From assembly GCF_041146795.1 (NCBI RefSeq), contig NC_135185.1:8543529-8607528 (forward strand): DNA of 64,000 nt, written 5' to 3'. The DNA comes from Maylandia zebra. Its lineage: Eukaryota > Chordata > Actinopteri > Cichliformes > Cichlidae. Under the pieces are notes generated by a model that saw only the letters and a list, made by a program, of their open reading frames with translations, was not told where the DNA came from and did no database searches. Position 1 is the first letter of the stretch. Each line of letters starts with the position of its first letter. Below are positions 5,429-57,651 of the stretch, in pieces. The position numbers and the translations under genes were made by a program.

Positions 5429-5433
5429 ATTAA

Positions 5434-6073
5434 TGTCACAGTCTGGCTGGGGCAGACCGTATGTGTTGCAGAGGAGGACTCAAACGCAGACCAAAGCGTA
5501 GTGTGGATAAACAAAACAAGCCGTTTATTGAGGCTAGCAATGAGGGTAAAATTAATCGGGCATCGGTGAAAACTAAACAATAACCTAAACTGGGTGAACT
5601 AATAACAAAACATGAAAAAGCTTAACCATAGTGAACTGACATGGGTACCTGGGGATGAGACATGGATGAGCAGACGACCTGACAACAAATGACTGAAAGC
5701 ACACGGACTAAATACACACAGGAGGATGATGAGGGAAGTGGGAACACATGGGGAAACAGCTGGCACACATGAACATAATGACGTCACAGTGGGAGAGTAA
5801 GACTGAACACGATGAACACAGAAACACCAGACCTCTTCACAATAAAACAGGAAACATAATGAGACATAGACATGACAACCCGAACTTGACAACGTAAGAC
5901 ACAGACATGAAACGCATGAAGAGCAGGGGAGATTTAACATAGTTGGAAACACGAGGGGGAAATAATAAGAACTAGAAACACCTAGGCATGATAACAAATG
6001 AACTTAGGAAACCTGAAGGGCTTACATAAACTAAAACTCAAAATGCTGGGTCAACAGACCCAGGATCATGACA
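5434..6073 (-). repeat. 3' LTR of LTR-family member 1
   Basis: 640 bases starting TGTCACAG and ending ATCATGACA on the plus strand, matching 8461-9100 almost base for base. On the minus strand it carries the TATTTAG box, a predicted transcript start beginning GTCAGGTCGT (5674-5683) and AATAAA. Confidence 0.9.
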
Positions 6074-8448
6074 GAGCCCCCCCTTCAAGAGCGGATCCCA
6101 GACGCCCAAAGACATAAAAAAAAAAAAGCCCCCCCACGGGCGGGCGGCGGGGGTCCAGGACGGAGGGCCAAAACAAAAACTACCACCAGAAGCACAGAGG
6201 ACAGTCCAGAAATCAGTCCAGTGGGCCAACCCAAAGGGCAGCAGCACCAGAGTCCGAACAGTTCAGGGGGCCGACCGTGCGGACGGCAACGGCGGCGACG
6301 ACATGGAAACAGTTCAGGGGGCCGACCGCGCGGAAGGCAGCGGCGGCGACGAAGGAGACGGAGCAGTTCAGGTGGCCGGCCGCGCGGAAGGCAGCGGCGG
6401 TGCTCCAGTGTCAAGCGTACTGGCCGAGGCCCGGTGGGCACAGGACCAGACGAGGCCGGACCAGGCGTAGACGATGTAGCCGAAGCAGAGGCCGGACCAG
6501 GCGTAGCCGAAGCAGAGGCCGGACCAGGCGTAGCAGAAGCAGAGGCCGGACCAGACGAGGACGAAGACTCGGATGAAGCCGGACCAGGCGAGGCACAGGC
6601 TGAAGCTGGACCAGGCGAGGATGAAGACTCTGATGAAGCTGGACCAGGCGAGGATGAAGACTCGGATGAAGCTGGACCAGGCGACGACGAGGCGGCCGCA
6701 GGTGGTGGCTGGACAGGCTCTTCGGGCCCTCCAGCTGACGCAGCGTGAGGCTGAACGGGCCCCTCGGACCCTCCAGCGGAGACGGGAGGCTGAACGGGCC
6801 CCTCGGACCCTCCAGCGGAGACGGGTGGCTGAACGGGCTCCTCGGGCCCTCCAGCTGACGAGGCATGAGGCTGGTGTGGTTCTCCGGAACCACCAGCTGA
6901 CGAGGAAGGCTGCTGGACGGGCTCCTCGGGCCCTCCAGCTGACGTGGCATGAGGCTGGACGGGCTCCTCGGGCCCTCCAGCTGACGTGGCATGAGGCTGG
7001 ACGGGCTCCTTGGGCCCTCCAGCTGACGTGGCATGAGGCTGGACGGGCTCCTCGGGCCCTCCAGCTGTCGAGGCATGACCAGCAGGTGTAGAGACCACCG
7101 GCTGGACAGAAGGCTGAGCAGGTGATGGAGCAAATGACTGAGCTGCACAGTGGGTTAAGGGCTGGGCTAACGGAAGCACAGGAATGTAAGCTACGGACCG
7201 GGCTGCTAACAGAGCTAATGACTGAGCTAATGACTGAAAGGCATGCAGTAGCGATGGCGGTGTGGATTGCAGACCGAATTCTCCTGAGCCCTCAGTAGAG
7301 ACAGGGACGGGTGCAGGAGCATGCCGGACACTAGCCACTCCCACCCGAGGAGTAGGTACGGGTGCGGAGACGGGCTGTATCCTGGCTGCCCTCACCCTGG
7401 GGACCGGAACAGGTACCGGCAACGGCTGGGCAACTACCCTTCCCACCCGAGGAGCAGGTACGGGTGCAGAAAGGGTCAGAGCCTCAGCCGGCCTGGAAAC
7501 CAGAGCGGGAGCCAACTGGGCCTGAGGCTCCCCAACCCGAGGAACAGACACGGGTGCAGAGGTACGCTGGGCCCGAGTTGCCCCGGGAGGAGAAACACGA
7601 GCAGGAACGGGAGTAGGCTCAGAAAAAACAGTCGCAGAAACGGCAGGCTCAGGGTCAACACATACAGGGTCGACAAAAACGGATCTATCAAAAATGAACC
7701 CGCCGTCCACTTCATGTTTAGCAGTCTTAGCATTTGCAGTCCTAGTTTTAACAGCTTTCGAAATCCGTGGGTTAGTGGTAGCAAAGCGGGTTGACTCAGG
7801 GATAACTGAAACGGACCTGACAGAACCTGAACAGACGGAAGCGGAACCGAGTGTGTTTGTCCTGGTAACGTAATTAACAGTCTTTCCCTTAACCGTATGT
7901 GCAGGCTTAGGCGAGCGGGAATTGTCTTTCATCCCTCCCTGTGTAGAGGGAGTAAAACAAAACGGATCCTCCCAGTCCACGTCGTCATCCAAATTCCCCA
8001 TGGATCGGAAGTGAGCCGATTGTTGTTAGCATCAGACGGGACGTGAGGGTAATAGTCATTGTTACTCACCACCATGAGCTCGGCATTGTCCAGTTTATGG
8101 CGACGGGCGCGCCGCTTCCTTCGAATGGAGGAAGCCGGCGGAGTGAGCGACTGAGCCCCCGGTGCACAACACGGCGACAACGAGGCTGGAGCGTGAGCGA
8201 CTGGAGCGTGAGCGACTGGAGCGTGAGCGCCTGTAGCCACGCGAAAAACTCCCACCTGAAGCGGACGAGGTTTGGAAACAGGCGGGGACTTACGGCAGCT
8301 CTTGGGACCTCCGAGAGCCAGCCGAGTCCCGTGGAAAATGCGCTCATAGTCGGGGGCGCGCCACGGCTTCCAGCGGAGCTCCTCCTCCAGCTGGGCGAAG
8401 GCTGCCTCCCGACGCGCGTAAAGCTCGCGGTCTGCTGAGTCCATAGTG

Positions 8449-8458
8449 GTCAGGTCGT
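8449..8458 (-). promoter_or_regulatory. Candidate self-priming primer-binding site
   Basis: Two bases inside the 5' LTR the minus strand reads ACGACCTGAC. This is the exact complement of GTCAGGTCGT at the predicted 5' end of the element's own RNA (minus strand 8710-8701). It does not begin TGG, as a tRNA 3'-end primer site would. Tf1 of fission yeast and the Tf1/sushi group prime this way. The related element at 53 kb shows the same pairing with a compensatory base change. Confidence 0.7.
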
Positions 8459-8460
8459 AC

Positions 8461-9100
8461 TGTCACGGTCTGGCTGGGGCAGACCGTATGTGTTGCAGAG
8501 GAGGACTCAAACGCAGACCAAAGCGTAGTGTGGATAAACAAAACAAGCCGTTTATTGAGGCTAGCAATGAGGGTAAAATTAATCGGGCATCGGTGAAAAC
8601 TAAACAATAACCTAAACTGGGTGAACTAATAACAAAACATGAAAAAGCTTAACCATAGTGAACTGACATGGGTACCTGGGGATGAGACATGGATGAGCAG
8701 ACGACCTGACAACAAATGACTGAAAGCACACGGACTAAATACACACAGGAGGATGATGAGGGAAGTGGGAACACATGGGGAAACAGCTGGCACACATGAA
8801 CATAATGACGTCACAGTGGGAGAGTAAGACTGAACACGATGAACACAGAAACACCAGACCTCTTCACAATAAAACAGGAAACATAATGAGACATAGACAT
8901 GACAACCCGAACTTGACAACGTAAGACACAGACATGAAACGCATGAAGAGCAGGGGAGATTTAACACAGTTGGAAACACGAGGGGGAAATAATAAGAACT
9001 AGAAACACCTAGGCATGATAACAAATGAACTTAGGAAACCTGAAGGGCTTACATAAACTAAAACTCAAAACGCTGGGTCAACAGACCCAGGATCATGACA
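8461..9100 (-). repeat. 5' LTR of LTR-family member 1
   Basis: 640-base direct repeat of 5434-6073. On the minus strand the start of the LTR holds a CTGGGTC/GACCCAG hairpin (9073-9090). A TATTTAG box lies at 8735-8741 and the predicted transcript start at about 8710, some 31 bases downstream. Confidence 0.9.
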
Positions 9101-9105
9101 ATTAA

Positions 9106-16656: not shown

Positions 16657-17327
16657 TGTTAGGATGCCTGGGTCGTTGACCCAGGGGTTTTGAGTTTATT
16701 ATATTTATACTTTCTAGTCTTTGGTTTCTTTGAGTTCTGTTTTATAGTTTATGTCTCTGTCTTCTCTAGCTGCTTTGTCTCCCCTGTCAGCTGTATCCCC
16801 TTGTCTAGTTCGCGTCTCTGTGTGTCCTTAGTGGCTGTATCCCCTTGTCTAGTTCGCGTCTCTGTGTGTCCTTAGTGGCTATATCCCCGTGTCCAGTCAG
16901 TGTTTGTGTCTGCCCTGGTCCCACGTCTCTGTTCCCTCTGTTGCAGTGCGTGCGAGTCTGTGTCTTTGTTCAGTCTGTGTTATGTGTTTCCTGTTTTACT
17001 TTGAAAGTCCATGTCTGATGTTAATGTGTCTGGTTTTGCTTCCCCTTGTCTCGTTAGGCCTGATTTGCCCCAGCTGTGTTTCCCTCCTGTTACCCATTCC
17101 CTGATTGCTCCCTCTGTGTATTTAAGCCCTGTGTTTCTGTGTCCATGTCGCGATCTACCGTTTTCTTAGCTGTGTGTTCTGTCATTTCTCTAGTTTAAGT
17201 TTGTTTTGAGTTTTTTTTAGTTTTGTTATATTTTGAGTATTAAATTAAAGCCTTTTTTGAGTTCACGTCTGTCTCCGGAGTCTGCACCTTGGGTCCTATT
17301 CCTGCCTGCACACAGCCTCACCTAACA
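16657..17327 (+). repeat. Right LTR of LTR-family member 2
   Basis: 671 bases with inverted ends TGTTAGG and CCTAACA. Near its start is the hairpin CCTGGGTC-GTT-GACCCAGG (16667-16685), shared with members 1 and 3. It has TATTTAAGCCC at 17119, a predicted transcript start GTCGCGATCT near 17147, and a late A-rich polyadenylation region. Confidence 0.75.
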
Positions 17328-30666: not shown

Positions 30667-30855
30667 TGTGTGATTCTTACTCTGAATCTGAATAAGTACG
30701 CGGGACCACTGTGTGCGGTAAGACCATCTCTTTACTTCCTGTATACCATCTACCGGCATGCATTGCCAGTGCGTAACACGTAATTACACAATCAAACAGT
30801 GAACACATACTGCCCATACAACAAATGTACCAGAGACAATTATGAATACACCACA
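30667..30855 (-). repeat. 3' LTR of the Mag/Jule-like element
   Basis: 189 bases, apparently identical to 35118-35306. Confidence 0.95.
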
Positions 30856-33800: not shown

Positions 33801-35117
33801 AACCGCGTCAACTCGCACCAGCAGGCCAAGAGCTGTAATGGCGGGCAGGCCTAGCAGTGGAGTGCTCAGGTTTCTTACAACATAGACCTTCTCTGTTGTC
33901 TGTTTCGCTCCGTAGTTGAGCTGTAGCTTTGTAAAACCTGCAACGTCCAGTGGTGTTTTTCCAGGGCCTAACAAAGGTTTTTCTGGCTGCTGGAGGACTG
34001 GTCTGTGTTCGTTAGCAAAAATCTTTGATAAGTCCGAGTCAGCTATTACAGTCACATCTGCTCCCGTATCCAGTTTGAAAGTGATTTTTGCATCTTTCAC
34101 TTGTATGTTGGCTGTCCACGCCTGGCCGTCACTGGAAACTGAGCCTAGGAAGAAACCTTGCTCCTCTTCCTCCTCAATACTTTGCACTGTCTTGCTTTGT
34201 CTGCAGACTCGCTGGTAGTGACCTTTTTTTCCACATAAATGACATTTTGCATCATTTGCTGGGCACTCAGGTTTCTGATGTGGAGAGCCTCCGCACTTGT
34301 AGCATTTGTTACTTTGTCTCTTGCTATATTGCTGTTGTGTTTTGACAGTTTTATTTTTGAACATGTTGAACTTTGTTTTGTCGTGCTTTTGTATCACTCT
34401 GTCAACTGTTTTCGCATTTACATGCATTACATTTGTTTCACTTCTCAAAGCTGACTGTTGCTTTTTGATTTCTTCTGACTGCCTGGCCATATTTATAGCT
34501 TTATCCAAGTCCAAGTCTTTTTCCATCTGCATGCGCTCAGACAGCCTCGTGTCGGCCAAGCCCACTACTATTCTGTCTCTTATCAGCTCATCGTGGAGCG
34601 GTCCGTAGTTACAGTGCTCTGCTAATGCATGCAAGGCAGTCACGAATGCATCAACAGTCTCATTCGGCTCTTGTTTGCGCATATTAAAACGTGCGCGCTC
34701 ATAAACAACATTTTTCCTGACAATGAAAAAGTTGTGGAAGCTATCTCTCACTTTAGCATAGTCCCGTTGGTCTACATCACTTAACTTTAGTCCTCTCAGG
34801 ACGTCATCCGCTTCGTCTCCCATACAATATATGAGAGTGTTCACTTGATTTTCCTCCGAGCTCGCAGACAGATTACTTGCCTGACGGAATCTCTCGAAGC
34901 GACGGACCCATCTTGTCCATTCGTGTGGTTTGGAAAAATCAAAGGGCTCCGGTGGTTGGATGCTAAACGTAGCGCTGGGAGTGCTAGCCGCGGTGCTAAC
35001 TCCTGCCCTCGGACGATCGTCTACGTCGTCATTCGGCATTTTGTTTCCACCTTCCCCTTCTCCTCACACTCGGCAGATGTATGGAGTCTTACAAGTCACA
35101 CAGCACTTCTGACACCA

Positions 35118-35306
35118 TGTGTGATTCTTACTCTGAATCTGAATAAGTACGCGGGACCACTGTGTGCGGTAAGACCATCTCTTTACTTCCTGTATACCAT
35201 CTACCGGCATGCATTGCCAGTGCGTAACACGTAATTACACAATCAAACAGTGAACACATACTGCCCATACAACAAATGTACCAGAGACAATTATGAATAC
35301 ACCACA
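35118..35306 (-). repeat. 5' LTR of the Mag/Jule-like element
   Basis: 189 bases. On the minus strand it starts TGTGGTGT and ends ATCACACA. It is followed inside the element by the primer-binding site. Confidence 0.95.
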
Positions 35307-36843: not shown

Positions 36844-37166
36844 TTTCCATTCTAGAAATAAGACCACACTGAAAAAAAATGGAAGTTTTCCTTTAAATAT
36901 TTAAGAGATTATCTAACCTGTTCTTTCAAGAAGAGAGCCGGGCCCTGTTTCAGGAAGCCGGTTTAGTGGAAAAACTGAGTAAGTATACCCTGAGTCAACG
37001 AAAACTCTGGGTTTTCGGTTTCACAAAGCGAGTTCAGCTGCAGCCTGAGTGAGTCACTATGACGACACACGCCGTGAAGCTAACCTGCCCCCTAGCAGGT
37101 TTACTACAACTAACCCTGACTGTCTCCGCCCCTTTGTCGGAAACCTGACAGTAGGAAGTGTCGGAC

Positions 37167-38449
37167 ATGGCGTGTCCCTTCCTTGAAGAGCCAGTAGATC
37201 GTGAAGCCCAAATTCTCCGCAGAGCTCTCCGCCGGGAGAGAGTGATCAGAGCGCGTTTGGACATTTTATCATTTCCTGATGATTTTCTGTGCGAACGTTA
37301 CTGTTTCTCAGCACAATCTATAATTTCTTTGAATAACATCCTCAGGCCATATATTACGCATGTGACACATCGCGGACATGCTCTCAGTTCATTACATATT
37401 ATTTGTATTGCACTTCGGTTTTTTGCAAACGGGAGCTTTCTGTATAATATTGGTGACGCTGAGCACGTTTCCAAGGCTACCGTCTGTCGGGCAGTCAGGA
37501 ATGTTACAGTTGCACTGAAACGTCTCCTGTACTCGTCTGTGGTGTTCCCCGGTCATAGACCCACAAGATTTATCAAAGAGGGATGCCACAAAATTGCAGG
37601 TATCAGGATGACCAAAACTTAATGTATGATGTGGTGATACTTGAACTACTACTTAAATATTACATTTATTTTCAGGGTTCCCAGGCGTGATTGGCTGTAC
37701 AGATGGCACTCACATTCCAATCATTGCTCCTTCAGTAAATGAAGGAGACTATGTGAACAGGAAGTCTTTCCACAGCATTAATGTACAGGTACATAGTTCC
37801 CTGTAGCATTTCAAACTAACAGATTATTTCATTATAGTAATGGATGCTAATTTGTGTTCTCTGCACTGTGAAGATCATATGTGATGCTGCCAACATTATC
37901 ACAAATGTGGAAGCCAAGTGGCCAGGCTCTGTCCATGACTCACAAATATTCCGTGAATGTACACTGAGCACAAAATTTGGACATGGTGAGTTGAGAATAC
38001 TTTAAAATATATAAAGACCAATTGCTTCAGGGACATTTGAACTGAAGTGTACCCTTCTGTCTTAGGAGAGTTCACTGGCTACTTGCTTGGTGATAGGGGG
38101 TATCCATGTTTACCCTATTTGCTTACCCCTTACTCTGACCCTGAACTGGGCCCACAGCAGCGATATAATCTGGCTAATTGCAGGACAAGAGCCAGAATTG
38201 AAATGACTATCGGAATGCTTAAGGCCCGGTTCCAGTGCCTGCAAAGACTCAGGGTCACCCCAGAAAAGGGCATGTGACATTATTGTGGCATGTGTGATTC
38301 TTCACAACATTGCCACAATCAGAGGAGAACACTGTCCTTCTGAACCAAACATCAGCAGTGATCCAAACCATGAACATCCTGACCCTCCCACGGACATACA
38401 AGATGGAAGAGCAGTCAGAGACACCATATGTCACAATCATTTCCTTTGA
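37167..38449 (+). pseudogene. Harbinger DDE transposase (copy 2), frameshifted
   Basis: Four exons: 37167-37599, 37676-37788, 37874-37985 and 38066-38449. The start [15 protein letters not shown] is chosen because it is the first ATG of the frame. DDE residues are D154 (GCTDG), D204 (SVHDSQ) and E265 (RARIEMTIG). The exon 1 frame is open here, unlike copy 1. One extra A after CACCCCAG (near 38262) shifts the frame near the C-terminus and truncates the protein after about 289 residues, downstream of the catalytic triad. The rest, up to the TGA at 38447-38449, is readable in another frame. Confidence 0.8.
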
Positions 38450-39554
38450 CCCATCACCTCAACATGTTGAAAGAAGAATAAACAGATTTTTTGTTCAACT
38501 GGCTTTATTGGTCGCCTGTATTTCCTGTACACAAAGTATTAAAAGATGTAAACCTCATAAAGTGTCTCTGTTGCTTCCTCCTCTGTAACAGCTGTCAATG
38601 TTTCTTCATTATTTTCCTGTAGTAAAGAAATAGACAACATTGCTGTTCTACTGTAACCTCATATAATCTGTGGAGTATTAAGAGTACTCACAACTGCATG
38701 TTGGTCTGGCTCAACAGGAGGCTGCACCAGATGCAGTACACCATCACCATCAACTGATAGAATATGAGGTTTATACAGGTCACTTATAACTTACAAGGGA
38801 CCAAATGGCAATTAACAAACATACCAATCACCTTACACTTCATTGTCATTATGCTCTCAAAGACAACCAAGGCTGAGGGAAGGCAAAATCAGTCGGAAAA
38901 TAACTTCACTACAAAATAATTCATTATGGTAAAGAGTTTATCAAATGAATGAGTAGCACTGCAAAGGTGACTGTGAAGAAAGGATGTATGCACATCATGT
39001 ATTATTTTGAATTTACCCCCTATGTAGGCACTTGTGTCTTGCGGGGTTATTGACTCAGAGGATGTCCCCGCAGAGATGCCTTCAGCCACAGGGCGCCCAC
39101 TGTTTTGGCTGAGGGCCAACTGCTCAGCCTCTGTGAGTGGTGGTGGAGGAGGACCCCCACCTGTTTTTCGGGCCTCCGCTTTTTTTCTGTTGGCTATAAC
39201 GGGCCACATTTGAGCATACAGAGTAAGCAAATATGTACTTGTAATGTGCTCAGATAATTTCAATAAGTGCTTACAGAAAGAAAATTAATGTAGCCTCTAA
39301 CTGCAATTGATTTACATCGGACAAACAGACCAAGCACTATGGCTCATAATACAATTACACCTTACCTGTTTGGACTATATTTTTATATTTCATTTTTACT
39401 TGCTGCCAGGAACGTTTGGGGCCTGTTGGGTTGCACCTGCGCTCACATCACATCACAAAATAAAATGTATAAAATAACAAATAAAATAACATATGATAAA
39501 ATAACGTGTTAAATGGGTGGAAATCCCTAGATCAATGTTTAAATTAACACTCAC

Positions 39555-40239
39555 TGTTATGACCCAGTGATGTGTTTGTTGGTATTGTGCATCCCCACCG
39601 GAGGATGGTTGGTGGTATTTTCCCTTTTCTTTCTTTTTCCCTCTCCTAGAAGGTGGACACCTAGGCGTGGCTGCTAAGTATCCGGGTGGAGTCTTTACCT
39701 ATCCTCGGACTGGATAATTGATGGACCACCTCCAGTACTTAACGTCCGGATGACAGACACCTGGCAGTGCTTTTGGGGAACCCCGTTGACTCGATCACGG
39801 AGTTGTGTGTGTGGTTATTGTAGTGCAGGCTGGAGTATTCACGTGTACCTCTAGCCTTGCCATGTAAATAATTGTAAATAGGTTAACAAGTGGCGGCCAC
39901 TTTTTTTTTTTGTACCTTTGCTGTATAACTTTCACTGTCGCAGCCTAGTAGGCGTGAGAAGCCGTTTCTTTTGTTGAACAAGTTTTCTCCTGTTTTTCGT
40001 TAGGTAATTAGGTAAGAGACTTGTCTTTTGTTTTTGTTTTTCTTTTTTTCTAGGGAAGTGTAGGGAGTGGGTTTTAGGGGGTTTTGTTTATTGTTTTGGC
40101 ATTGCTCACTGCCGATGAAAATAAATGGCTGCTTAAATACTTGACAAAGGTGTCTTTGTTGGGGTTTGTGCGTGGGTGGGAAGTGAGTGGGGCAAAACTT
40201 TTGTTGCGTTTGATTGCTTGCCGGGACCAGAACGTAACA
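39555..40239 (+). repeat. 5' LTR of the Gmr1-like element
   Basis: 685 bases, TGTTATGACC...ACGTAACA, apparently identical to 45075-45759. Confidence 0.95.
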
Positions 40240-40334
40240 TATTGGGGGCTCGTCCCTTTGGTGGTTCTTTTTGTGGCTTGTTTTCTTGGTTGGCGGTTTT
40301 TTCTTGTGTGGGGGGTGTGTGTGTGTGTGTTAGG

Positions 40335-43300
40335 ATGGAGTTTAAGTTGGAGGACTTCACTCTGAGCCCGTCTGCGGAGAAGTTGGACAGGTGTAAAAAG
40401 GCTGACCTCTTGCTTGTTGCTGAATTCTTTGATGTGACTGTGCCGTTGACTGCGAAGAAGAAAGAGCTTAGGGAGCTCCTGTGTGTCCAGTTGACGGACA
40501 GGGGGTTGTTTGGTGAGCCGGGTCCTGCAGGGGGGGTTGAGCTGGGGGCTGTTGCTGGTGTTTCTGCCCCACTGAAAAATCTCCCTTTTCCACCTAGCCC
40601 TTCTGTGGAGGAGCTGCGGTTAACGCTGCGCATTAAGGAGGTGGAGCTAAAGAAACAGCAGTTGGAGGTGGACGCTATGCACTTGAGGATCAGGGCTCTG
40701 GAGGTAGAGAGGGGAGCCTCTGTGTCTGCCAGCCCTCCTGTACCTCGGTTAGCCCCGCAGTCACCATCCCCGCAGGTACCCTCCCCGGAGTCATCATCCC
40801 CGCAGGTACCCTCCCCGGAGTCATCATCCCCGCAGTCGCCATCTCCGCAGCCACCGGCCCCGATGCCAGGTGGTGGCTTTGATGTGAGTAAACACATCAA
40901 AATGGTGCCGGCGTTTCGGGAAACTGAGGTGGATTCGTATTTCACAGTGTTTGAACGTATCGCAGGTGCGCTGCACTGGCCAAAGGATGTGTGGTCTCTT
41001 TTACTCCAATGTAGATTGGTGGGGAAAGCTCAAGAGGTATGCACCGCTCTTTCTCTGGAGGACAGTTTTGACTATGATACGGTGAAGGCTGCTGTCCTGC
41101 GCGCTTACGAGCTTGTGCCAGAGGCTTACAGGCAGAGATTTAGGGATGGGAAAAAATCCGCCAACCAGACCTATGTGGAGTTTGCCAGAGAAAAGAAAAC
41201 TCTGTTTGATAAGTGGTGTCATGCTACAGAAGTAAAAACCTTGGAAGACCTGCGTGAGTTGGTGACGTTAGAAGAGTTTAAAAATCAACTACCAGACACT
41301 GTGGTAACCTACTTAAACGAACAGAAGGTTACGACTCTCGCCGCTGCTGCTATACGGGCTGATGAGTTTGTGTTGACACATAAAGTGGTGTTTTCGGCTC
41401 CTGCTCACAGTGTTCCGTCTTCCGGTGGCCCGCCCCGATGGTCTCCAAGGGGCACCCGCCGTGCCATCCCCTCATCCGTTGAGAACCGCGTGTGTTTTTT
41501 TTGCCATGAGCAGGGACACCTTATTGCGGTTTGCCCTGCTCTGAAAAGAAAAGAAATGACCAGGAAGGGTGCATCTCCTTCCCCAATAAACCTTCTACAG
41601 ATAAACCCTCCTCCTTTGGGGGAGGTGATGGTACCCGAAAATGATAAGGTAGATGAGGAGTTTAAGCCATTTGTGTCACACGGTTTTGTTTCCTTGATAG
41701 GGGAAGATCGGCGGGCTCCTGTCAGTATTTTGCGAGACACTGGTGCGAAACAGTCGCTCATTCGTGAGGGGGTTTTACCGTTTTCAGCTCAATCCTATTG
41801 TGGGGCTGATGTGTTAGCCTGGGGAGTTAGGATGTGTGTAATACGGGTTCCTTTACATTTGGTGCAGCTTTCGTCTCAGTTTTTGTCTGGTGAGGTTAAG
41901 CTTGGGGTGCGACCCCAGTTACCGGTTGCAGGTATTGACATCATTTTGGGAAACGATCTAGCTGGCTGCACAGTTTTTCCGTCGCCAGAAGTAGTTGATA
42001 TACCACTTACAGATAATAGTGGTTTCGCTTGTGCCACATCAAATGCTGTTCCTTTGTTTCCTGTGTGTGCTGTGACACGTGCGCAGGCACGCAAACAGGG
42101 TGACTTGGTGGGTCTTAGCGACTTTTTCTTAAGCGCTTCAGACACACTGAGCTTGCGACCCGCCTGTGAAGGTACCCCTGTCTCTGTATCACTTCAGCCG
42201 GATGAGGAGACTATGACTCTGTCAGTAGATAAAGACAAGCTTATAGAAATTCAAAAAAATGATGAGAGCTTGTCATCTTGTTGGGCGTATGTGACAGAGC
42301 CTAAGAGTGGGAGATCTGCGTCCTACCTTATTGAGGATGGGGTGCTGATGCGCTACTGGACTCCCAGTTCTGGCTGCACCCATGAGGGAGTGCAGCAGAT
42401 TGTTGTTCCGCAGTCGCTTCGTCCCCAGGTCCTAAGCTTGGCACATGACCACATTATGTCCGGTCACTTGGGAATCACAAAAACATATAACCGTGTCCTC
42501 CGTTATTTCTTTTGGCCTGGTCTCAAATCTGATGTGGTAAGATTCTGCCGCTCGTGTCACACGTGTCAGCTTGCTGGTAAACCAAATCAGGCGATTCCCG
42601 CTGCTCCGCTACAACCCATCCCGGTTGTTGGGGAACCTTTTGAACATGTCATTGTTGATTGTGTGGGTCCTCTTCCTAAAACACAGTCCGGAAATCAATA
42701 CCTACTTACCATGATGTGTATTACCACTCGTTATCCGGAGGCCATTCCACTACGCTCATTAAAAACCCGTGGGATTGTGAAAGCATTAGTTAAGTTTTTT
42801 TCCACTTTCGGGTTGCCTAAACGCATCCAAACTGATCAGGGCACAAACTTTATGTCTAAAATCTTTGCCCAGGTCATGACAGAGCTCGGTGTCACTCATC
42901 ACACTTCGAGCGCATACCACCCGGAGAGTCAGGGTGCATTAGAAAGGTTCCATCAAACCCTAAAAAACATGCTTCGCAAATTTTGCACGGAGTCTGGCCG
43001 TGAGTGGGATGAGGGGGTGCCACTACTGTTGTTTGCCGTCAGGGAGACATGTCAGGAGTCTTTGGGGTTCAGTCCAGCTGATTTGGTTTTTGGCCACACG
43101 GTGCGCGGTCCGTTACGTCTCCTGAAAGAGAAATTTCTCTCAGATAGTCATCGGCCGAAAGAAAATATTCTGGACTATGTTAGTTTGTTTAAGGAGAGGC
43201 TACATAATGCCTGTGCTTTGGCTCGTGACATGCTAGCAAAGGCTCAGGTTAGAATGAAAACACATTTTGATAAGAAGTCTGTAGTACGGATGTTCCAGTC

Positions 43301-45020
43301 AGGTGACCGCGTGTTGGTTTTCTTGCCGGTTGTTGGTTCTTCCCTGCAAGCAAAGTTTTCCGGTCCGTATGTCATTGAGCGCAAACTAAGTGAGACGGAT
43401 TATGTGGTGTTAACCCCTGATCGTAAGAGGAAAAGTCGCGTCTGTCACATCAACATGCTGAAGGAATACATTGATCGTGACCGCTCTAGTTTGGCACCTG
43501 TTGTGTCACCTATTGTGTCGGTATCCGTTTCTCAACCCTTGTATAGTCCCGGCGATGACGGGTTGGATGACAGGCACACCTCTGTTTCGGGTGCGCGTCT
43601 TGGGAACTCTGAAATCTTGGCTGACTTGGATGCCTATTTGGCGCCCCTGTCTGATCCCGCTAATTCTGATGTCCGTGAGCTCATTACAAACTACTCTGCT
43701 CTTTTCGGTGACATCCCCACTCAAACGCATGTATTAAGTCATGATATTGATGTGGGTGACCATAAGCCCATAAAGCAGCATGCATACCGGGTAAATCCCA
43801 CTAAGCGGGCCATTATGCAGCAAGAAGTCCAGTATCTTCTTGACCACGGTTTTGCTTTCCCCAGTAATAGCTCTTGGAGCTCACCATCACTTCTCGTTCC
43901 AAAACCCGATCAAACTCCCCGTTTCTGTAATGATTTCCGAAAAGTAAATGCTGTTACGAAACCCGATTCGTTTCCTCTCCCACGTATGGATGATCTGGTC
44001 GATCGTGTGGGTTCGGCAAACTTTGTAACCAAACTTGACCTCTTAAAAGGGTACTGGCAGGTCCCCTTAACTCAACGCGCATCAGAAATCAGTGCCTTTG
44101 TTACACCCGATCATTTTTTGCAATATACCGTCATGCCGTTCGGGTTGAGAAATGCCCCCGCCACATTTCAACGACTGATGAACACTGTGTTACAGGGAGT
44201 CGTAAATTGCGAAGTGTACCTGGATGATATAGTGGCCTATTCCTCCACCTGGACTGAACACCTCAAGATTCTCAGGGAAATATTTGACCGGTTGCATGAT
44301 GCCTCTCTGACACTGAATCTGGCTAAGTGTGAGTTTGGAAAGGCGGTTGTAACTTATCTAGGGAAACAAGTAGGACAAGGTAGAGTCCTCCCTGTTGCTG
44401 TGAAAGTGCAGGCAATAGTAGACTTTCCAGTTCCACAGACTCGCCGGGAGCTGCGGCGTTTTTTGGGCATGGCAGGTTATTACCGTGGGTTCTGCAAAAA
44501 CTTCTCTGAGGTAGTAGCCCCGTTAACCAGTCTTGCCAGTCCAAAATCGCCATTTGTGTGGACAGAGAAATGTCAGTTCGCTTTCGAAGCTGCTAAAGCT
44601 CTCCTTTGTAGTGCTCCGGTGTTGGCCGCCCCTGATTTTACACATCCGTTCAAGCTTGAGGTGGACGCCAGTGTTTTGGGGGCAGGTGCAGTGCTCGTGC
44701 AGGAGGATGACAATGGCATTGACCACCCAGTCTGCTTCTTTTCTAGAAAATTTCTAAAACACCAACTGCATTACAGCACGATTGAAAAGGAAGCCTTAGC
44801 CTTGCTATTGGCCTTGCAGCACTTTGAAGTGTATCTGGGATCTAGTCCTGTTCCAACCATTGTGTTCTCTGACCATAACCCTCTCCAGTTTCTATCTCGG
44901 ATGCAAAACAGCAACCAGCGCCTTATGCGTTGGTCCCTACTCCTTCAGGACTTCAACATTGAGATCCGATATAAAAAGGGCTTAGAGAACGTTATGGCTG
45001 ATGCCCTCTCTAGGGCTTAA
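40335..45020 (+). CDS. Gmr1-like Gag-Pol polyprotein
   Basis: 1561 residues from the first ATG after the primer-binding site (MEFKLEDFTLSPSAEK). The frame is also open upstream into the LTR, but an ATG there would lie before the likely RNA packaging region. Domains: an N-terminal SAP-like helical segment; gag capsid region (about residues 190-350); one CCHC knuckle (CFFCHEQGHLIAVC, about 386-400); protease (DTGAKQSLI, about 468); integrase zinc finger (HIMSGHLGITKTYN through CRSCHTC, about 704-745) and DDE core (D near 775 in VDCVGPL, D near 834 in TDQGTNF, E near 869 in ALERFHQ); reverse transcriptase (YLDDIVAYS, about 1295); RNase H (LEVDASVLGAGAVL, about 1440). The two enzyme blocks are in the Gmr1 order. 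Confidence 0.9.
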   Translation: MEFKLEDFTLSPSAEKLDRCKKADLLLVAEFFDVTVPLTAKKKELRELLCVQLTDRGLFGEPGPAGGVELGAVAGVSAPLKNLPFPPSPSVEELRLTLRIKEVELKKQQLEVDAMHLRIRALEVERGASVSASPPVPRLAPQSPSPQVPSPESSSPQVPSPESSSPQSPSPQPPAPMPGGGFDVSKHIKMVPAFRETEVDSYFTVFERIAGALHWPKDVWSLLLQCRLVGKAQEVCTALSLEDSFDYDTVKAAVLRAYELVPEAYRQRFRDGKKSANQTYVEFAREKKTLFDKWCHATEVKTLEDLRELVTLEEFKNQLPDTVVTYLNEQKVTTLAAAAIRADEFVLTHKVVFSAPAHSVPSSGGPPRWSPRGTRRAIPSSVENRVCFFCHEQGHLIAVCPALKRKEMTRKGASPSPINLLQINPPPLGEVMVPENDKVDEEFKPFVSHGFVSLIGEDRRAPVSILRDTGAKQSLIREGVLPFSAQSYCGADVLAWGVRMCVIRVPLHLVQLSSQFLSGEVKLGVRPQLPVAGIDIILGNDLAGCTVFPSPEVVDIPLTDNSGFACATSNAVPLFPVCAVTRAQARKQGDLVGLSDFFLSASDTLSLRPACEGTPVSVSLQPDEETMTLSVDKDKLIEIQKNDESLSSCWAYVTEPKSGRSASYLIEDGVLMRYWTPSSGCTHEGVQQIVVPQSLRPQVLSLAHDHIMSGHLGITKTYNRVLRYFFWPGLKSDVVRFCRSCHTCQLAGKPNQAIPAAPLQPIPVVGEPFEHVIVDCVGPLPKTQSGNQYLLTMMCITTRYPEAIPLRSLKTRGIVKALVKFFSTFGLPKRIQTDQGTNFMSKIFAQVMTELGVTHHTSSAYHPESQGALERFHQTLKNMLRKFCTESGREWDEGVPLLLFAVRETCQESLGFSPADLVFGHTVRGPLRLLKEKFLSDSHRPKENILDYVSLFKERLHNACALARDMLAKAQVRMKTHFDKKSVVRMFQSGDRVLVFLPVVGSSLQAKFSGPYVIERKLSETDYVVLTPDRKRKSRVCHINMLKEYIDRDRSSLAPVVSPIVSVSVSQPLYSPGDDGLDDRHTSVSGARLGNSEILADLDAYLAPLSDPANSDVRELITNYSALFGDIPTQTHVLSHDIDVGDHKPIKQHAYRVNPTKRAIMQQEVQYLLDHGFAFPSNSSWSSPSLLVPKPDQTPRFCNDFRKVNAVTKPDSFPLPRMDDLVDRVGSANFVTKLDLLKGYWQVPLTQRASEISAFVTPDHFLQYTVMPFGLRNAPATFQRLMNTVLQGVVNCEVYLDDIVAYSSTWTEHLKILREIFDRLHDASLTLNLAKCEFGKAVVTYLGKQVGQGRVLPVAVKVQAIVDFPVPQTRRELRRFLGMAGYYRGFCKNFSEVVAPLTSLASPKSPFVWTEKCQFAFEAAKALLCSAPVLAAPDFTHPFKLEVDASVLGAGAVLVQEDDNGIDHPVCFFSRKFLKHQLHYSTIEKEALALLLALQHFEVYLGSSPVPTIVFSDHNPLQFLSRMQNSNQRLMRWSLLLQDFNIEIRYKKGLENVMADALSRA

Positions 45021-45074
45021 ATCAAACATCTTTGTGTGGGGTTGGATGTTTGATTTTTTTTGGGTGGGGGAAAC

Positions 45075-45759
45075 TGTTATGACCCAGTGATGTGTTTGTT
45101 GGTATTGTGCATCCCCACCGGAGGATGGTTGGTGGTATTTTCCCTTTTCTTTCTTTTTCCCTCTCCTAGAAGGTGGACACCTAGGCGTGGCTGCTAAGTA
45201 TCCGGGTGGAGTCTTTACCTATCCTCGGACTGGATAATTGATGGACCACCTCCAGTACTTAACGTCCGGATGACAGACACCTGGCAGTGCTTTTGGGGAA
45301 CCCCGTTGACTCGATCACGGAGTTGTGTGTGTGGTTATTGTAGTGCAGGCTGGAGTATTCACGTGTACCTCTAGCCTTGCCATGTAAATAATTGTAAATA
45401 GGTTAACAAGTGGCGGCCACTTTTTTTTTTTGTACCTTTGCTGTATAACTTTCACTGTCGCAGCCTAGTAGGCGTGAGAAGCCGTTTCTTTTGTTGAACA
45501 AGTTTTCTCCTGTTTTTCGTTAGGTAATTAGGTAAGAGACTTGTCTTTTGTTTTTGTTTTTCTTTTTTTCTAGGGAAGTGTAGGGAGTGGGTTTTAGGGG
45601 GTTTTGTTTATTGTTTTGGCATTGCTCACTGCCGATGAAAATAAATGGCTGCTTAAATACTTGACAAAGGTGTCTTTGTTGGGGTTTGTGCGTGGGTGGG
45701 AAGTGAGTGGGGCAAAACTTTTGTTGCGTTTGATTGCTTGCCGGGACCAGAACGTAACA
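45075..45759 (+). repeat. 3' LTR of the Gmr1-like element
   Basis: Direct copy of 39555-40239 at a constant offset of 5520 bases, with no difference seen by eye. Confidence 0.95.
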
Positions 45760-46429
45760 CTCACGCATTGACTCTGTCGGCTATGTTTTGCCATGCATGC
45801 TCCCTTTCTTTTGCAGCTGTGGCTGTGTTACTTTTTTCCGCGGAATTTGCATGTTATCAGCATATGCTGCCATCAGAATTTCGGCCTCAAGCGCTGTAAA
45901 ATACATTGACCGCGCCTTCTTTCCCTCCGTCTCCATGGTGACTCGCTTAATCTGTGCTCCGCTTATCAGGGCTTTATGTATCCTCGTCCGCACGCTTCAC
46001 TTGGGGTTAAAGCAACTCCGCGTTGACTGAACTAATTGTTATCACCCTTTCTGAAACCGAATATTCCGAGTTGGACAGTTCGGGGTTACTCAACCGTGAG
46101 TGTCGTTTTTCACTCTGAGTTTTCCAAACCGGCTTCCTGAAACAGGGCCCTGGCCATCTGAGCTGCATTTCCTTGACCAAGGGCTGCATCTCCACAACTT
46201 CTTTCCTCCTGAGAGAGAATGTGATGTCCATCTTTTGGGTGATGAGTGCCATGTTCTTATCCCTCTTCTTCATTTCATCTTCCAAAATGCATCTTTCATT
46301 TTCAAGAGACTCATCATTGTAGTTTTCTGGGGCATCAGGGATAAAGTTGACTTCACCTCGCTTTGGTTTCTTTAATAAGTTTTAAAAGTTACTCAAGTCA
46401 TTTAAAAGTAACAGACCCTTGGAACTTAG

Positions 46430-52767: not shown

Positions 52768-53003
52768 AAATCATGTAGAACTCATATGTTTGCTTTATGC
52801 CAAAACTGGAAGTCTTGTTATTCTCTCAAGATTGTTTTTAATCATTGTGTTGTGTTTTCATGATGATAATTTTTATACATTTATATTAAAATTAACTATT
52901 ATGGTGCAAAGCTTGTGTGTATCATTAGTACAGCTAACTGTGTTCAATACACTTAATCCTTTGTGAAAGAGTAAAGGGATAAATGTGAGTATTAAGTAGT
53001 TTT

Positions 53004-53716
53004 TGTCACGGTTCTGGGTCAGTTTGACCCAGTATTTTGAGGAGTTATGTTTTTGGTGTGTTTTTGCATTTTTGATTCTTTTCTTATTATGATGATAATG
53101 ATGATTATGACTCTATGTTTCGGTTATTCTTGTTTAGGGATTAGTTCGTAGGTTTTTGTGTTCTCATGTTTATTGCAGGTTTAGTTCAGTGTCTAGTCTG
53201 TCTCTCTGTGTCGTGTCTGCGTGTTTGTTTAGTGGTGTCTTGTTTCCTGTTTTACTCTGAAGGTTCATGTTCCCGTCTTATGTCAGTGTTTCTAGCTTTG
53301 TTCCTCCTGTCTCATTAGGTCTTATTCCTCCCAGTTGTGTTCTCCTTCTGTCTCTAATTCCTTGATGACGGCCTCAGTGTATTTAAGCCCAGTGTGTCTT
53401 TGTGTCAGTGTCAGATCGTCTGTTATCCTCACCTCGTATTTTCGTAGTTTCCCTTGTTGTGACACTGTTTCATAGCCTGCTTAGTTACTCTGTGTTTATA
53501 GTTTTTTCCATAGTTCCTTCACAGAGTGTCTTAGCCTTTTTAGTTTACACAGTGTTCTCTGTCTTCTTAGTTTTCCCAGTTTCAGTGTTCCCTAGTGTTT
53601 TTGTTATGCCTTCAGCCACAATAAAGGCTTGCCTTATTTTGGAAACCTAGTTCTGTCTCCACTGTGTCTGCTCTTGGGTCTACCTCATTCTTCACACCGG
53701 CGCGCCCGCCGTGACA
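53004..53716 (+). repeat. Left LTR of LTR-family member 3
   Basis: Shows the hairpin CTGGGTC/GACCCAG (53014-53032), TATTTAAGCCC (53380), a predicted transcript start GTCAGATCGT (53410-53419) 30 bases downstream, and AATAAAGG near the 3' end. Confidence 0.85.
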
Positions 53717-53718
53717 GT

Positions 53719-53728
53719 ACGATCTGAC
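53719..53728 (+). promoter_or_regulatory. Candidate self-priming primer-binding site
   Basis: ACGATCTGAC starts two bases after the LTR end (53716). It is the exact complement of GTCAGATCGT at the predicted RNA 5' end (53410-53419). In member 1 both strands of this pairing carry the compensatory change (ACGACCTGAC with GTCAGGTCGT). Confidence 0.7.
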
Positions 53729-56700
53729 CATGTCAGACCCAGCGGACAGTCCAGACGAGATTGGGGAGAAGCTGCAACAGATCAGCCGGCTCATGACGCG
53801 CATCTGTGGGTGCACGGACCCCAGAGTGGTGTCCACTGGGTTGGCGGCCATTGACGCCATCCTCCAGAAGGCGCCGCAGCTCCGACAGTTTCCCCAGCTT
53901 TTTGAGGCGTTCGACTCTCTGGCCCCCCTGAAGGAGGAGCTTCGCGCCCGCACGCTGGCCCAGAGGGTGTTAAACGCCGCCTCCGCACCTACGACTCCGA
54001 CCCGTAAACGGTTGTCGTTGTCGTCACCGCTGCCTCGCGAGCCGGAGGCAGTCAGAGTAGGGACTCTGAGGCTCACCGCTGCACCGCCATCGACTCACAG
54101 TTCGTCTCCGCCACTGTCAAGCTGCACAGCCCAGCGCACCGAGATGGTGGAGGCCACAGATTTCGACGACGATGAGCGACAGCAGGTATTGCTAGCTTTA
54201 TGGGAGGACGAGCTTCGTTGGAAGCCCTGGCTCATTTCGGAGGAGGAACTCACACCTGTTGCACCGCCTCGGACCAGCCGCTCGCCCTCTCCACCCCGCT
54301 CGGACTTTACTTCACCTGCCTCTTTTCTGGCAAGGATGTGGGAGGACGACGAGGAGATCGCCGTCACATCACCCTCTTCTTCGGTGGCTTCAGCATCCAT
54401 CGTACCCACTTCCAGAAAGAACCGGCGTCAGCGCCGCCGTCAGCGCCACCGTCAGCGCCGCGCTACCCCTGGGGGTGAGTGACTGTGTGTCTGTGTCTCA
54501 TAATCCTTCTATAGAGAGGAGCGAGATGTGCATTGATTCGCCGGGGCCGGACACTATGACTGAATCATGTTCTGAGACTGACAGTACAGTGTTTAGTTGT
54601 TTAGAAAGACCTACTACGGAAATCATGGAGTCCGGCCTCTGTGAGCGGCAGCAAGCAGCTTGCACCCACGTAGAGGAGGCGCTCCGGGGAAAGCCGTGGC
54701 TCACCCCCGATTGTCAGCACATCTTTCGGGGAACACGCCTGGCTCTCGGGGGGCCCTCGGAGCTGCCAGGGTCTGCCACCCCTCACTTCCCCAACAGCCA
54801 ATGCTTCAGCCTCAGTGGTTTCTTCAAAGAAGAGGCGACATCCACGTCGCCGCAGCACCACGCAGCAGCTGGAGGTTGGTGGAACTCTCGTTTCCTCTCG
54901 GACTCCGTTAATAATAGAGGTTAGTGACAATCTTTCGCCTCAAAGTCTTCCTAAGTTTCTGGAATGTGACTGTCATGAAGGGTTCGCAGACGCTCCAGAG
55001 ATAAAGACAATTTCTACATGTGTTGGAGGAGCAATAGCGACCCAGTGCTCCTCAACACCACCCATTCTCTTAATAAACGATGAAAGTATTGATCACGAAC
55101 TCATGTTTGGTGTGAAGGGTGGTGATATAACCTCTGGGCATGAGCGGTGTGACTTAAATAATGACACCCTGTCTGTACCCGGTGATCAACTTGACTGTTC
55201 CTCAGCTCATTCATCTTGTGACTCATCTACTTGTTATGAATTGTGTAAACCAGAGGAGAACAATTCAAAGCAACCTCTGAGTGATGCTCTCACTCCTGTA
55301 CTCAACAAGCACAATTCACCTGAGTTTTGTGTTCCAGGTCAAGAGAACAGTAATGGGAATGTGGTTTATGTTCTGAACTCTAAAAGTGAATTGTGCCCCC
55401 CAGAAGAAGATGGGGGACACATGTCTGAACCATGTAGCTCCAGCACCCCTCAGGGCGCAGTGAATGCTGGGGCTGAGATCTGGGCCTCCGATACTATCTC
55501 TAATGGTCATGTTTTACCGTCAGTTTGTGTAAATTTGGAATCATGTTCTTTTGTTTCTTCTAAATCATTTCAGGATGGGGTGTTGGTTGGGAGCACTACT
55601 GATATAGTAAGCTCAGAGTCTGCACCACCACTGGCAGCCACAGCTCTATTAGACTCTGTGTTAGCTGCACCTCCATTCATAGATGACTCAGAGTCTCTGT
55701 CTAAGTCAGCTTCTGGTGGGGGGCTAGCTGGGGAATGCAGGCCTGAGACTGCCAAATACCAGGCCGAGCCGCATGATTCCTGTCAGTCAGAGCGTAATGA
55801 GGCTTCAATCCCCTCTGACAGCGTCACTTTTGCTTCGTTTGTGCCTAATGTGTTCTCTGCTAAATCTAATGGCTCTGTCAAACCAATCACAGAAGAGTTT
55901 ATTCAGACTCTTGGCGTTAACCTAGTGCCAGCCGTCCCATCAGAAGTAAGTGTAACTGCTGTATCTGTAAGCACAGACTCTGATCAGGTTACAAGTCCAC
56001 CACATGACTGCAAAATGAACGTGAATGAGTCTTCTTTACCCAGTTGTGCCGACTTAATGGATGTCCAGGAACCTAGCCATGAACTGATTAATCATGTTTC
56101 TATGAACGGTTCAGTTATACACGCAGCTTATGTGGTCGAACTAGCCCCTTTGGTGACTGAAACCCTGTCACAGGTGAAGACTGTCACAGGACAACAACGT
56201 GACGTTTCTTTAGAGGAAATGAACTGTACTGAGAGCCTTGGGGGTCCAACTTTCGAACAGGGTTTTTCCATAACAGTTAACTTGCTTGCTAGGAATGGCG
56301 AAACTTCCGCTAGAGCTGATGCAGAGACTGTTACTGACTCTGGGCAATATTATGGGGTTGATGCTGCCTGTGTGTCCAAGATATGTAATTCTGGTGAGGG
56401 TGAGGCAGCCAATCTGAGTTTGTGTTTTTCTGCTTCTGAGTTAAAAGAACCAAAGACTGAGAATAAAGACCCTGACTTTATGTTTGTGAAGGAAAATGAA
56501 AATATGAATTTGGACAATGACAGGCAGACCTCTGAAGGGAACACACACATAGTACTTGGCTGCGACACCACTTCTTCTCAGACTGCCATGGACATTTCTG
56601 TTCTGGGTTCTGAACCAGACGGTGAACAAATGAGTAATGTTTTCAGGGGCGATCTGGTGGGAAATGAATTGTGTGATGTTACATTAAATTTCCCAGAGAG

Positions 56701-57322
56701 TCAGCGGCATCTTTCTTCTGCCAGAGTAACGGCTCAGCCCCCTGTTCAGCTCTCTGTTTTGCCAGGGGTCTCCATAACTGCTCATCCTGCATCTGTAGCT
56801 GGATGCCTGGGTGTGCCACCTCGGCACCTCGCAGCACCCCCGCTGCTTCATGCCTCGTCAGCTGGAGGGCCCGAGGAGCCCGTCCAGCCACCTCTACCAC
56901 CTGCGGCTCCGTCGCCCGCAGCACCTACGCCGTCGCCTGGTCCAGCTTCTGCTCCGCCTACGCCATCGCCTGGTCCAGCTCCGGCTGCCGCTTCCTCTCT
57001 GCCTGGTCCAGCTCCGCCTGGTCCAGCTCCGGCTGCCGCGCCACCTCGGGATCGCCGGCCACTTTCCAGGCCGGCCGCCGGACGTCATTGGTGTCGTGGA
57101 CGGCCTCCTGATCTCTGTTGCCGCAGTCTTCCTCACGGCCGGCCTCCAGACCTGTTTTACTTTGGACTCCTGTGCTGCCGCCCGCATGGTCGTCCCCCAG
57201 AACTACTTGCCCGCCACCACCGTTGCCGCCCGCACGGTCGGCCCCCTGAACTTTTTGAGGCTCGTGTTGGCTTTAGTTTGATTTTGTCAGTTTTCCTGGA
57301 CTCTCCTTGTTTTTTGTTGGTT

Positions 57323-57646
57323 TGTGTCTTTGTGTCAGTGTCAGATCGTCTGTTATCCTCACCTCGTATTTTCGTAGTTTCCCTTGTTGTGACACTGTTT
57401 CATAGCCTGCTTAGTTACTCTGTGTTTATAGTTTTTTCCATAGTTCCTTCACAGAGTGTCTTAGCCTTTTTAGTTTACACAGTGTTCTCTGTCTTCTTAG
57501 TTTTCCCAGTTTCAGTGTTCCCTAGTGTTTTTGTTATGCCTTCAGCCACAATAAAGGCTTGCCTTATTTTGGAAACCTAGTTCTGTCTCCACTGTGTCTG
57601 CTCTTGGGTCTACCTCATTCTTCACACCGGCGCGCCCGCCGTGACA
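57323..57646 (+). repeat. Partial right LTR of LTR-family member 3
   Basis: 324 bases identical by eye to 53393-53716, ending GTGACA before the GTTTT duplication. Confidence 0.85.
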
Positions 57647-57651
57647 GTTTT

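What the first reader, a model, noticed from the sequence alone, without database searches (positions are those of the whole stretch)
53410..53728. Self-priming signal with a compensatory base change between two elements
In member 3 the site ACGATCTGAC, two bases inside the LTR, is the exact complement of GTCAGATCGT (53410-53419), which lies 30 bases after TATTTAA, where transcription should start. In member 1 (minus strand) the site is ACGACCTGAC (8449-8458) and the start is GTCAGGTCGT (8701-8710), 31 bases after TATTTAG. The one difference between the elements is present on both sides of the pairing. Tf1 and the sushi group prime reverse transcription with the 5' end of their own RNA, using about 11 bases. 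No TGG-type tRNA site is present. This links the enzyme-less family to a Tf1/sushi-type helper.
Basis: partly seen in the sequence, partly recalled or inferred. Interest (0 to 1): 0.9.

Follow-up and report, generated by a model that had tools for sequence, protein, structure and literature searches.

The report
Self-priming code in fish retrotransposons
These fish jumping genes, which carry no recognisable enzymes of their own, appear to start copying their RNA with its own first ten letters instead of a borrowed tRNA, and related families in the same genome carry different primer letters whose landing site has changed to match.

Summary
In detail: in members 1 and 3 a 10-mer 31 and 30 nt after the first T of the TATA box is the exact complement of a 10-mer two bases after the LTR, and their one difference is on both sides. 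Member 2 lacks a 5' end; its LTR predicts PBS AGATCGCGAC (noted), found in all 5 copies with a PBS region among 20 fetched later. Of 32 junctions with different PBS 10-mers, 20 have an exact complement upstream, 3 complete it with G-U, 6 have one mispair, 3 have no convincing site; permuted partners give at most 5 exact against 18 within 400 nt. Matches of 9/10 or more lie at +29 to +32 from a TATA-like motif and at no other offset from 20 to 44. A further helix, U5 with the bases after the PBS, also co-varies, as in Tf1's 'pretzel'. Chromodomain elements with gag and pol show the same primer rule; members 1-3 match neither. Best reading: Tf1/sushi-type self-priming by enzyme-less dependents. 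Their helper was not identified.

The parts
53004..53716 (+). Member 3, 5' LTR (713 nt), TGTCACGG...CCGTGACA
   Evidence: target duplication GTTTT at 52999-53003 and 57647-57651
53380..53386 (+). TATTTAA, TATA-like box of member 3
53410..53419 (+). Self-primer GTCAGATCGT, inferred first 10 nt of the transcript
53666..53681 (+). U5 arm GTCTGC-TCT-TGGGTCT of the third duplex
   Evidence: LTR position 663
53719..53728 (+). PBS ACGATCTGAC, two bases after the LTR
53735..53747 (+). Arm AGACCCA-GCGGAC after the PBS, pairs with the U5 arm; also codes part of the ORF start (ATG at 53730)
57323..57646 (+). 3' copy of the LTR of member 3, without U3; primer site repeated at 57340-57349
53730..57322 (+). 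Internal region of member 3: open frames 250 aa and 921 aa (the second runs on to 57580), no Pfam match at a curated cut-off, no match to gag or pol of two sushi-type elements
8461..9100 (-). Member 1, 5' LTR (640 nt)
   Evidence: target duplication TTAAT at 9101-9105 and 5429-5433
8735..8741 (-). TATTTAG, TATA-like box of member 1
8701..8710 (-). Self-primer GTCAGGTCGT of member 1
8503..8518 (-). U5 arm GTCTGC-GTT-TGAGTCC of the third duplex
   Evidence: LTR position 583
8449..8458 (-). PBS ACGACCTGAC of member 1
8430..8442 (-). Arm GGACTCA-GCAGAC after the PBS of member 1 (ATG at 8444-8442)
5434..6073 (-). Member 1, 3' LTR, primer site repeated at 5674-5683
6085..8444 (-). Open frames of member 1, 171 and 638 aa, proline-rich, no enzyme domain found
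16657..17327 (+). Member 2, 3' LTR; its 5' end and PBS are lost
17147..17156 (+). Primer site GTCGCGATCT of member 2, 28 nt after the first T of TATTTAA (17119-17125); the PBS it predicts, AGATCGCGAC, was found in genome copies

Best explanation
Members 1-3 are LTR retrotransposons without recognisable gag or pol that start reverse transcription with the 5' end of their own RNA. Transcription starts at the G of the primer site; the first 10 nt fold back onto the PBS two bases after the LTR; the helix is held by a second short pairing (bases after the primer with the LTR end) and a third (a U5 arm with the bases just after the PBS); RNase H of a borrowed Tf1/sushi-type reverse transcriptase cuts after the primer and the primer is extended. 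Shown here: the anatomy, its position, the co-variation of primer and PBS, the co-variation of one pair of the third helix, and autonomous chromodomain elements with the same anatomy in this genome. Inferred: the transcript start, the cut, the helper, and that the PBS of each new copy is read off the primer, which would keep the two sites matched and let the pair drift quickly.
For: Exact 10-mer pairs in members 1 and 3 with a two-sided difference. Member 2 prediction, noted: all 5 of the later-fetched copies with a PBS region carry the predicted PBS; 3 pair exactly, 1 has a U-G pair, 1 a mismatch. 32 junctions, one per PBS 10-mer, chosen without regard to the primer: 20 exact, 3 complete with G-U, 6 with one mispair, 3 without a convincing site; 2,000 permutations of PBS among LTRs gave at most 5 exact within 400 nt against 18 observed there, and at most 7 against 21 with G-U. 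In 52 junctions (the 32 and 20 others, some sharing a PBS), matches of 9/10 or better lie only at +29 to +32 from a TATA-like motif, at none of the 21 other offsets from 20 to 44; 38 of 52 junctions against at most 10 in 200 permutations; with one junction per PBS, 23 of 35 against at most 7 in 300. Folding puts the primer on the PBS with mean probability 0.97-0.99 in four RNAs; with another family's PBS it is 0-0.26, except between members 1 and 3, whose PBS differ by one base (0.71 and 0.93). Third helix: U5 G or A matches C or T after the PBS in 47 of 52 loci, mismatches in 2, not readable in 3; Fisher P 5e-7 on distinct combinations, relatedness ignored. Autonomous elements with gag, RT, RNase H, integrase and chromodomain have exact primers of 10 nt (L110) and 11 nt (L109).
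Against: No transcript start was measured. One-sided changes occur: 3 of 17 member-1-type copies have lost the terminal pair; L070, L094, L101, L122, L127, L129 and L140 show one mismatch. L119, L126 and L133 have no convincing site (L133 has only G-U-rich 9/10 matches away from a TATA-like motif), and of 6 member-3-type copies with a PBS one (L027) has none. L120 and L127 break the key pair of the third helix. For member 3 alone the third helix is weak. No autonomous element with the primer of member 1 or 3 was found among the 150 SH3_Tf2-1 matches listed. Copies are related, so counts are not independent events.
Confidence: 0.93

Rival explanations
1. The LTRs use a cellular tRNA (3' end or an internal half) and the match to the LTR is coincidental.
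For: Most LTR elements do so; two other LTR elements of this window have TGG-type sites at or near the LTR end (the tRNA names Pro and Leu are recalled).
Against: No TGG within the first 17 bases after the LTR of members 1 and 3; 29 of 32 different PBS 10-mers have their own upstream complement, exact or with one mispair, and it lies at a fixed distance from the TATA-like motif. A fixed set of tRNAs would not give this. No tRNA set was searched.
Confidence: 0.02
2. The pairing is a real RNA structure but serves packaging, dimer formation or translation, not priming.
For: The helix would exist whatever its use; the third arm lies at the start codon.
Against: The PBS lies two bases after the LTR end, where a primer should sit for the cDNA to end near the LTR; the primer starts where transcription should start; the same anatomy primes Tf1, where it was tested (PMC7175516, PMC10085805, passages).
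Confidence: 0.04
3. Primer and PBS agree because the copying process rewrites the PBS from whatever primes it, so agreement shows copying and not selection for pairing.
For: In retroviruses the PBS of the new DNA is read from the primer (recalled); the Tf1 self-primer is reported as not removed (title of Atwood-Moore 2006, seen only as a reference).
Against: This is a rival to 'compensatory mutation' as a term, not to self-priming; the third helix, which would not be read from the primer, also co-varies at its key pair.
Confidence: 0.5

Closest known systems
Tf1 / Tj1 self-priming (Schizosaccharomyces)
   Same: First bases of the RNA pair with a PBS downstream of the 5' LTR; three-duplex 'pretzel'; self-priming in place of a tRNA (PMC10085805, PMC4600332, PMC7175516, passages read).
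   Different: Tf1 pairs 11 bases and is autonomous; members 1-3 pair 10, leave two bases between LTR and PBS, and code no recognisable gag or pol.
Tf1/sushi group chromoviruses of vertebrates (sushi-ichi and relatives)
   Same: LTR ends fit the published Sushi motif TGTYANR...CNTNACA (PMC3601003, passage); autonomous chromodomain elements of this genome show the same primer rule.
   Different: Members 1-3 have no gag, protease, RT or integrase match, so they can only be dependents.
Plant Tcn1 and TAR lineages with predicted self-priming
   Same: PBS predicted to pair with the element's own RNA (PMC6317226, passages).
   Different: Plant elements with polyproteins; no two-sided variation of the pair is described in the passages read.
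TRIM, Helenus and TR-GAG non-autonomous LTR elements
   Same: Two LTRs, no enzymes, thought to be moved in trans (PMC6934838, PMC10886601, passages; TR-GAG recalled).
   Different: Helenus has tRNA-type PBS and no canonical PBS could be identified for the bivalve TRIMs; TRIMs are under 1 kb; TR-GAG keeps gag (recalled), which was not found here.

Membership tests
Tf1/sushi-type self-priming (as a mechanism) | Start of the RNA complementary to a PBS just after the 5' LTR | tested here: met
   complementarity and position; the RNA start itself is inferred from the TATA-like box
Tf1/sushi-type self-priming (as a mechanism) | Three-duplex 'pretzel' around the PBS | tested here: met
   third duplex; the second (CTG with CAG) is seen in folds of members 1 and 3 but was not tested over families
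Tf1/sushi-type self-priming (as a mechanism) | Primer cut from the RNA by RNase H and joined to cDNA | not testable with these tools
   needs RNA and cDNA
Tf1/sushi group of chromoviruses (as a clade) | Chromodomain integrase and RT of that clade | tested here: not met
   members 1-3 have no match to gag or pol of two such elements and no Pfam pol domain; so filed as dependents, not as members
Tf1/sushi group of chromoviruses (as a clade) | LTR termini TGTYANR...CNTNACA | tested here: met
   members 1, 2, 3 read against PMC3601003; the rGmr1 motif also fits members 1 and 3, so weak
TRIM | Element shorter than about 1 kb | tested here: not met
   member 1 spans 5434-9100, member 3 53004-57646
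TR-GAG | A gag domain (definition recalled) | tested here: not met
   a gag diverged beyond these searches is not excluded

The most novel reading that the evidence does not exclude
Self-primed LTR elements in one vertebrate genome have radiated into dozens of private primer/PBS codes. Because the primer travels in the same RNA, enzyme-less elements need not match the primer of their helper, and because the PBS of a new copy is read off the primer, one change in the R region becomes a matched pair within a cycle or two. The same RNA helix fixes the first codons (M-D-P/S-A) of otherwise unrelated proteins.
Probability: 0.45. Interest if true: 0.78.

Novelty: new variant of a known kind. Interest (0 to 1): 0.65.

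Why it matters
Self-priming has been tested directly in yeast and inferred from sequence in vertebrates and plants (passages of PMC4600332, PMC6317226, PMC10085805). Here one genome offers many natural experiments: many primer sequences, most with their own matching landing site, at one distance from the promoter. That makes the transcript starts of many elements predictable, gives a sequence test for self-priming in any genome, shows enzyme-less elements with the same signal, and raises a testable question: whether the PBS is copied from the primer. I found no paper on enzyme-less self-primed LTR elements or on primer/PBS co-variation in the listings of searches (open-licence PubMed Central papers) or in the passages read; the main paper on vertebrate sushi elements (Butler 2001) was not looked up or read, and two Lin and Levin papers are not held.

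Tried and rejected
Scanning viral contigs for the junction found nothing. The short pattern ACANNACGAYCTGAC is not enriched in the genome (91 hits, 109 for the reversed control), so it was used only to pick places; of the 20 fetched, 12 are LTR junctions used in the counts (L089, L090, L092, L093, L094, L096-L101, L108), L095, L102, L103, L104, L106 and L107 have no site, and L091 and L105 (one mismatch each) were left out as rearranged or doubtful. From the 100 listed junction hits, out of 988, I took one copy of each of 32 PBS variants and dropped three (two off-pattern, one equal to member 1); as the pattern requires ATGGACYCAGC, the M-D-P/S-A start in those 32 is selected, not found. Free of that choice are members 1 and 3, the member-2-type copies, the 12 junctions above, L109 and L110; L109 was read by eye after its LTR and is not in the counts. 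In one search six of 52 junctions were not located (L119, L126, L133, L138, L097, L098); L138 pairs exactly but its TATA region lies outside the piece, and L097 and L098 pair 9/10. In one search the third-helix letter of L118 was read wrongly from inside its PBS; one search corrects this. In one search the third helix of member 3 alone is weak (36 of 2000 U5 shuffles, 193 of 2000 downstream shuffles and 26 of 232 internal 24-mers as good), that of member 1 is stronger (4, 4 and 5), so the case rests on the family comparison. A helper with the PBS of members 1 or 3 was sought by setting the 91 places against the 150 matches: none 2-9 kb apart on the same strand. Structure prediction, Rfam and a set of tRNAs were not used.

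Full report
WHAT IS THERE. So the host is taken to be a cichlid. Member 1 (minus, 5434-9100) and member 3 (plus, 53004-57646) are LTR elements with intact outer ends and 5-bp target duplications. The two LTRs of member 1 are 99.4% alike, and the part of the LTR that member 3 holds twice is identical over 326 nt. Member 2 has only its 3' LTR (16657-17327). No gag, protease, RT or integrase was found in the three: among ten open frames of the window Pfam found such domains only in two other LTR elements, with weak hits below the curated cut-offs for some frames of members 1-3; pol of two autonomous sushi-type elements matches only those same two elements in the window, and their gag matches nothing in it.

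THE OBSERVATION. In both elements the complement is exactly 10 bases and starts two bases after the LTR end; shuffled LTRs reach this in 0.32% and 0.66% of cases without any demand on the position in the LTR. Folding R-U5-PBS puts all ten bases on the PBS with probabilities of 0.94-1.00, and the helix goes on, past one bulged base, with CTG of R on CAG at the LTR end.

A PREDICTION MADE BEFORE LOOKING. The LTR of member 2 has GTCGCGATCT at the expected start, which differs from member 3 at six of ten positions. This predicts PBS AGATCGCGAC; the prediction was written down, before the genome search was answered. Of 20 member-2-type LTRs fetched later (out of 40 scored matches), 5 are followed by a PBS region and all 5 carry AGATCGCGAC two bases after CCTAACA; 3 pair exactly, one has an A-C mismatch (L070) and one a U-G pair (L085). 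The other 15 are followed by unrelated sequence.

MANY FAMILIES. The pattern TGACA, 13-24 bases, ATGGACYCAGC occurs 988 times in the genome and 3 times when read backwards. The 100 places listed hold 35 different 10-mers at the PBS position. One copy of each of 32 was fetched. Twenty have an exact complement upstream (18 within 400 nt; two further out), 3 complete the pairing with G-U, 6 have one mispair (two of these also with G-U), and 3 have no convincing site. With PBS permuted among LTRs the exact count within 400 nt was 0.71 on average and at most 5 in 2,000 permutations, against 18. In a test that fixes the site by a TATA-like motif and not by the PBS, matches of at least 9/10 occur only at +29 to +32, with +31 the main peak, and at none of the 21 other offsets from 20 to 44 (52 junctions, 53 motifs). 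Over 35 distinct primer/PBS combinations from the 46 junctions located, five positions show all four Watson-Crick pairs; the last pair is U-A in 34 and broken in 1.

WITHIN FAMILIES. Of the 30 member-1-type loci cut, 17 hold a PBS. All 17 keep GTCAGGTCGT while the bases before it vary; 14 of 17 keep the PBS exactly and three have lost the terminal pair. A further copy fetched later (L101) has one mismatch in the primer. Among 6 member-3-type copies with a PBS, two pair exactly (one is member 3 itself), three have one U-G pair (L010, L021, L030) and one has no site (L027); L021 shows the change of member 1 on both sides again. L096 and L108 share a coding start but differ by the same two-sided change; L097, of another family, holds a G-U pair at that position.

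THE THIRD HELIX. Yeast elements use a three-duplex structure (PMC10085805, passage read). Here the U5 motif GTCTGC-NNN-TGRGTCY pairs with RGACYCA-GCRGAC just after the PBS; between members 1 and 3 two pairs differ on both sides (sequences). Over 52 loci the key pair is C/G in 36 and T/A in 11, mismatched in 2 and not readable in 3; 42 of 52 duplexes are at or below P 0.05 against 300 shuffles of U5. The arm overlaps the start of the open frame, so the first codons M-D-P/S-A of autonomous gag and of unrelated ORFs may be set at least partly by RNA (in 32 loci these codons are fixed by the search pattern). This is inference.

AUTONOMOUS RELATIVES. The SH3_Tf2-1 domain has 150 scored matches of 1123 candidates, many inside open frames of over 1,100 aa. 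L110 and L109 code gag and a protease-RT-RNase H-integrase-chromodomain frame. L110 has PBS ACGGACTGGC and GCCAGTCCGT in its LTR; L109 has an 11-base match one base after the LTR. L118 and L142, with an SH3_Tf2-1 match about 4 kb downstream, pair exactly; L122 and L140, likewise placed, pair 9/10. So helpers of the right kind exist, though none with the primer of member 1 or 3 was identified.

HOW IT LIKELY WORKS. Transcription starts at the G of the primer; the RNA 5' end folds on the PBS; a borrowed Tf1/sushi-type reverse transcriptase cuts and extends it; the two bases between LTR and PBS would be trimmed at integration. These steps are inferred. Since the primer is in the same RNA, an enzyme-less element need not share the primer of its helper. 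If, as with retroviral tRNA primers (recalled), the PBS of the new copy is read from the primer, matched pairs arise without two independent mutations. This too is inference, and would explain how so many pairs coexist.

WHAT IS KNOWN AND WHAT IS NEW. Self-priming of the Tf1/sushi group, vertebrates included, is in print (PMC6317226, PMC10085805, passages; the original vertebrate paper was not read). What I did not find in the searches named under Why it matters is enzyme-less elements using it, or a genome-wide set of co-varying primer/PBS pairs. I therefore call it a new variant of a known kind.

Noticed in passing
57323-57646: The 3' LTR of member 3 lacks U3: its copy of the LTR begins 17 nt before the primer site, although the outer end and target duplication are intact. 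Probably a deletion after insertion.
   Followed up: partly
39553-45759: LTR element with integrase before RT in one 1614-aa frame and a SCAN domain (Gmr1-like order), identical LTRs, and a TGGGGGCTCGTCCC primer site like tRNA-Pro (recalled).
   Followed up: partly
30667-35306, minus strand: LTR element with 189-nt identical LTRs, gag-protease, RT-RNase H and integrase frames, and a TGGTGTCAGAAG primer site like tRNA-Leu (recalled).
   Followed up: partly
24343-27326 and 36930-39554 / 45755-46153: Large inverted repeats, about 97-99% alike; the Gmr1-like element sits in the right arm.
   Followed up: no
14937-15899 and 6476-7078: Members 1 and 2 carry long coding tandem repeats (39-nt units in member 2, 42-nt and other units in member 1) that match each other in opposite orientation, about 74-93% alike.
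   Followed up: no
8294-8405 with 54655-54767; 8218-8327 with 14090-14211: Short coding stretches of member 1 that are 75-77% alike in members 3 and 2; the protein block (EELRWKPW...FRGTRLALGGP in cichlid relatives) has no Pfam match.
   Followed up: partly
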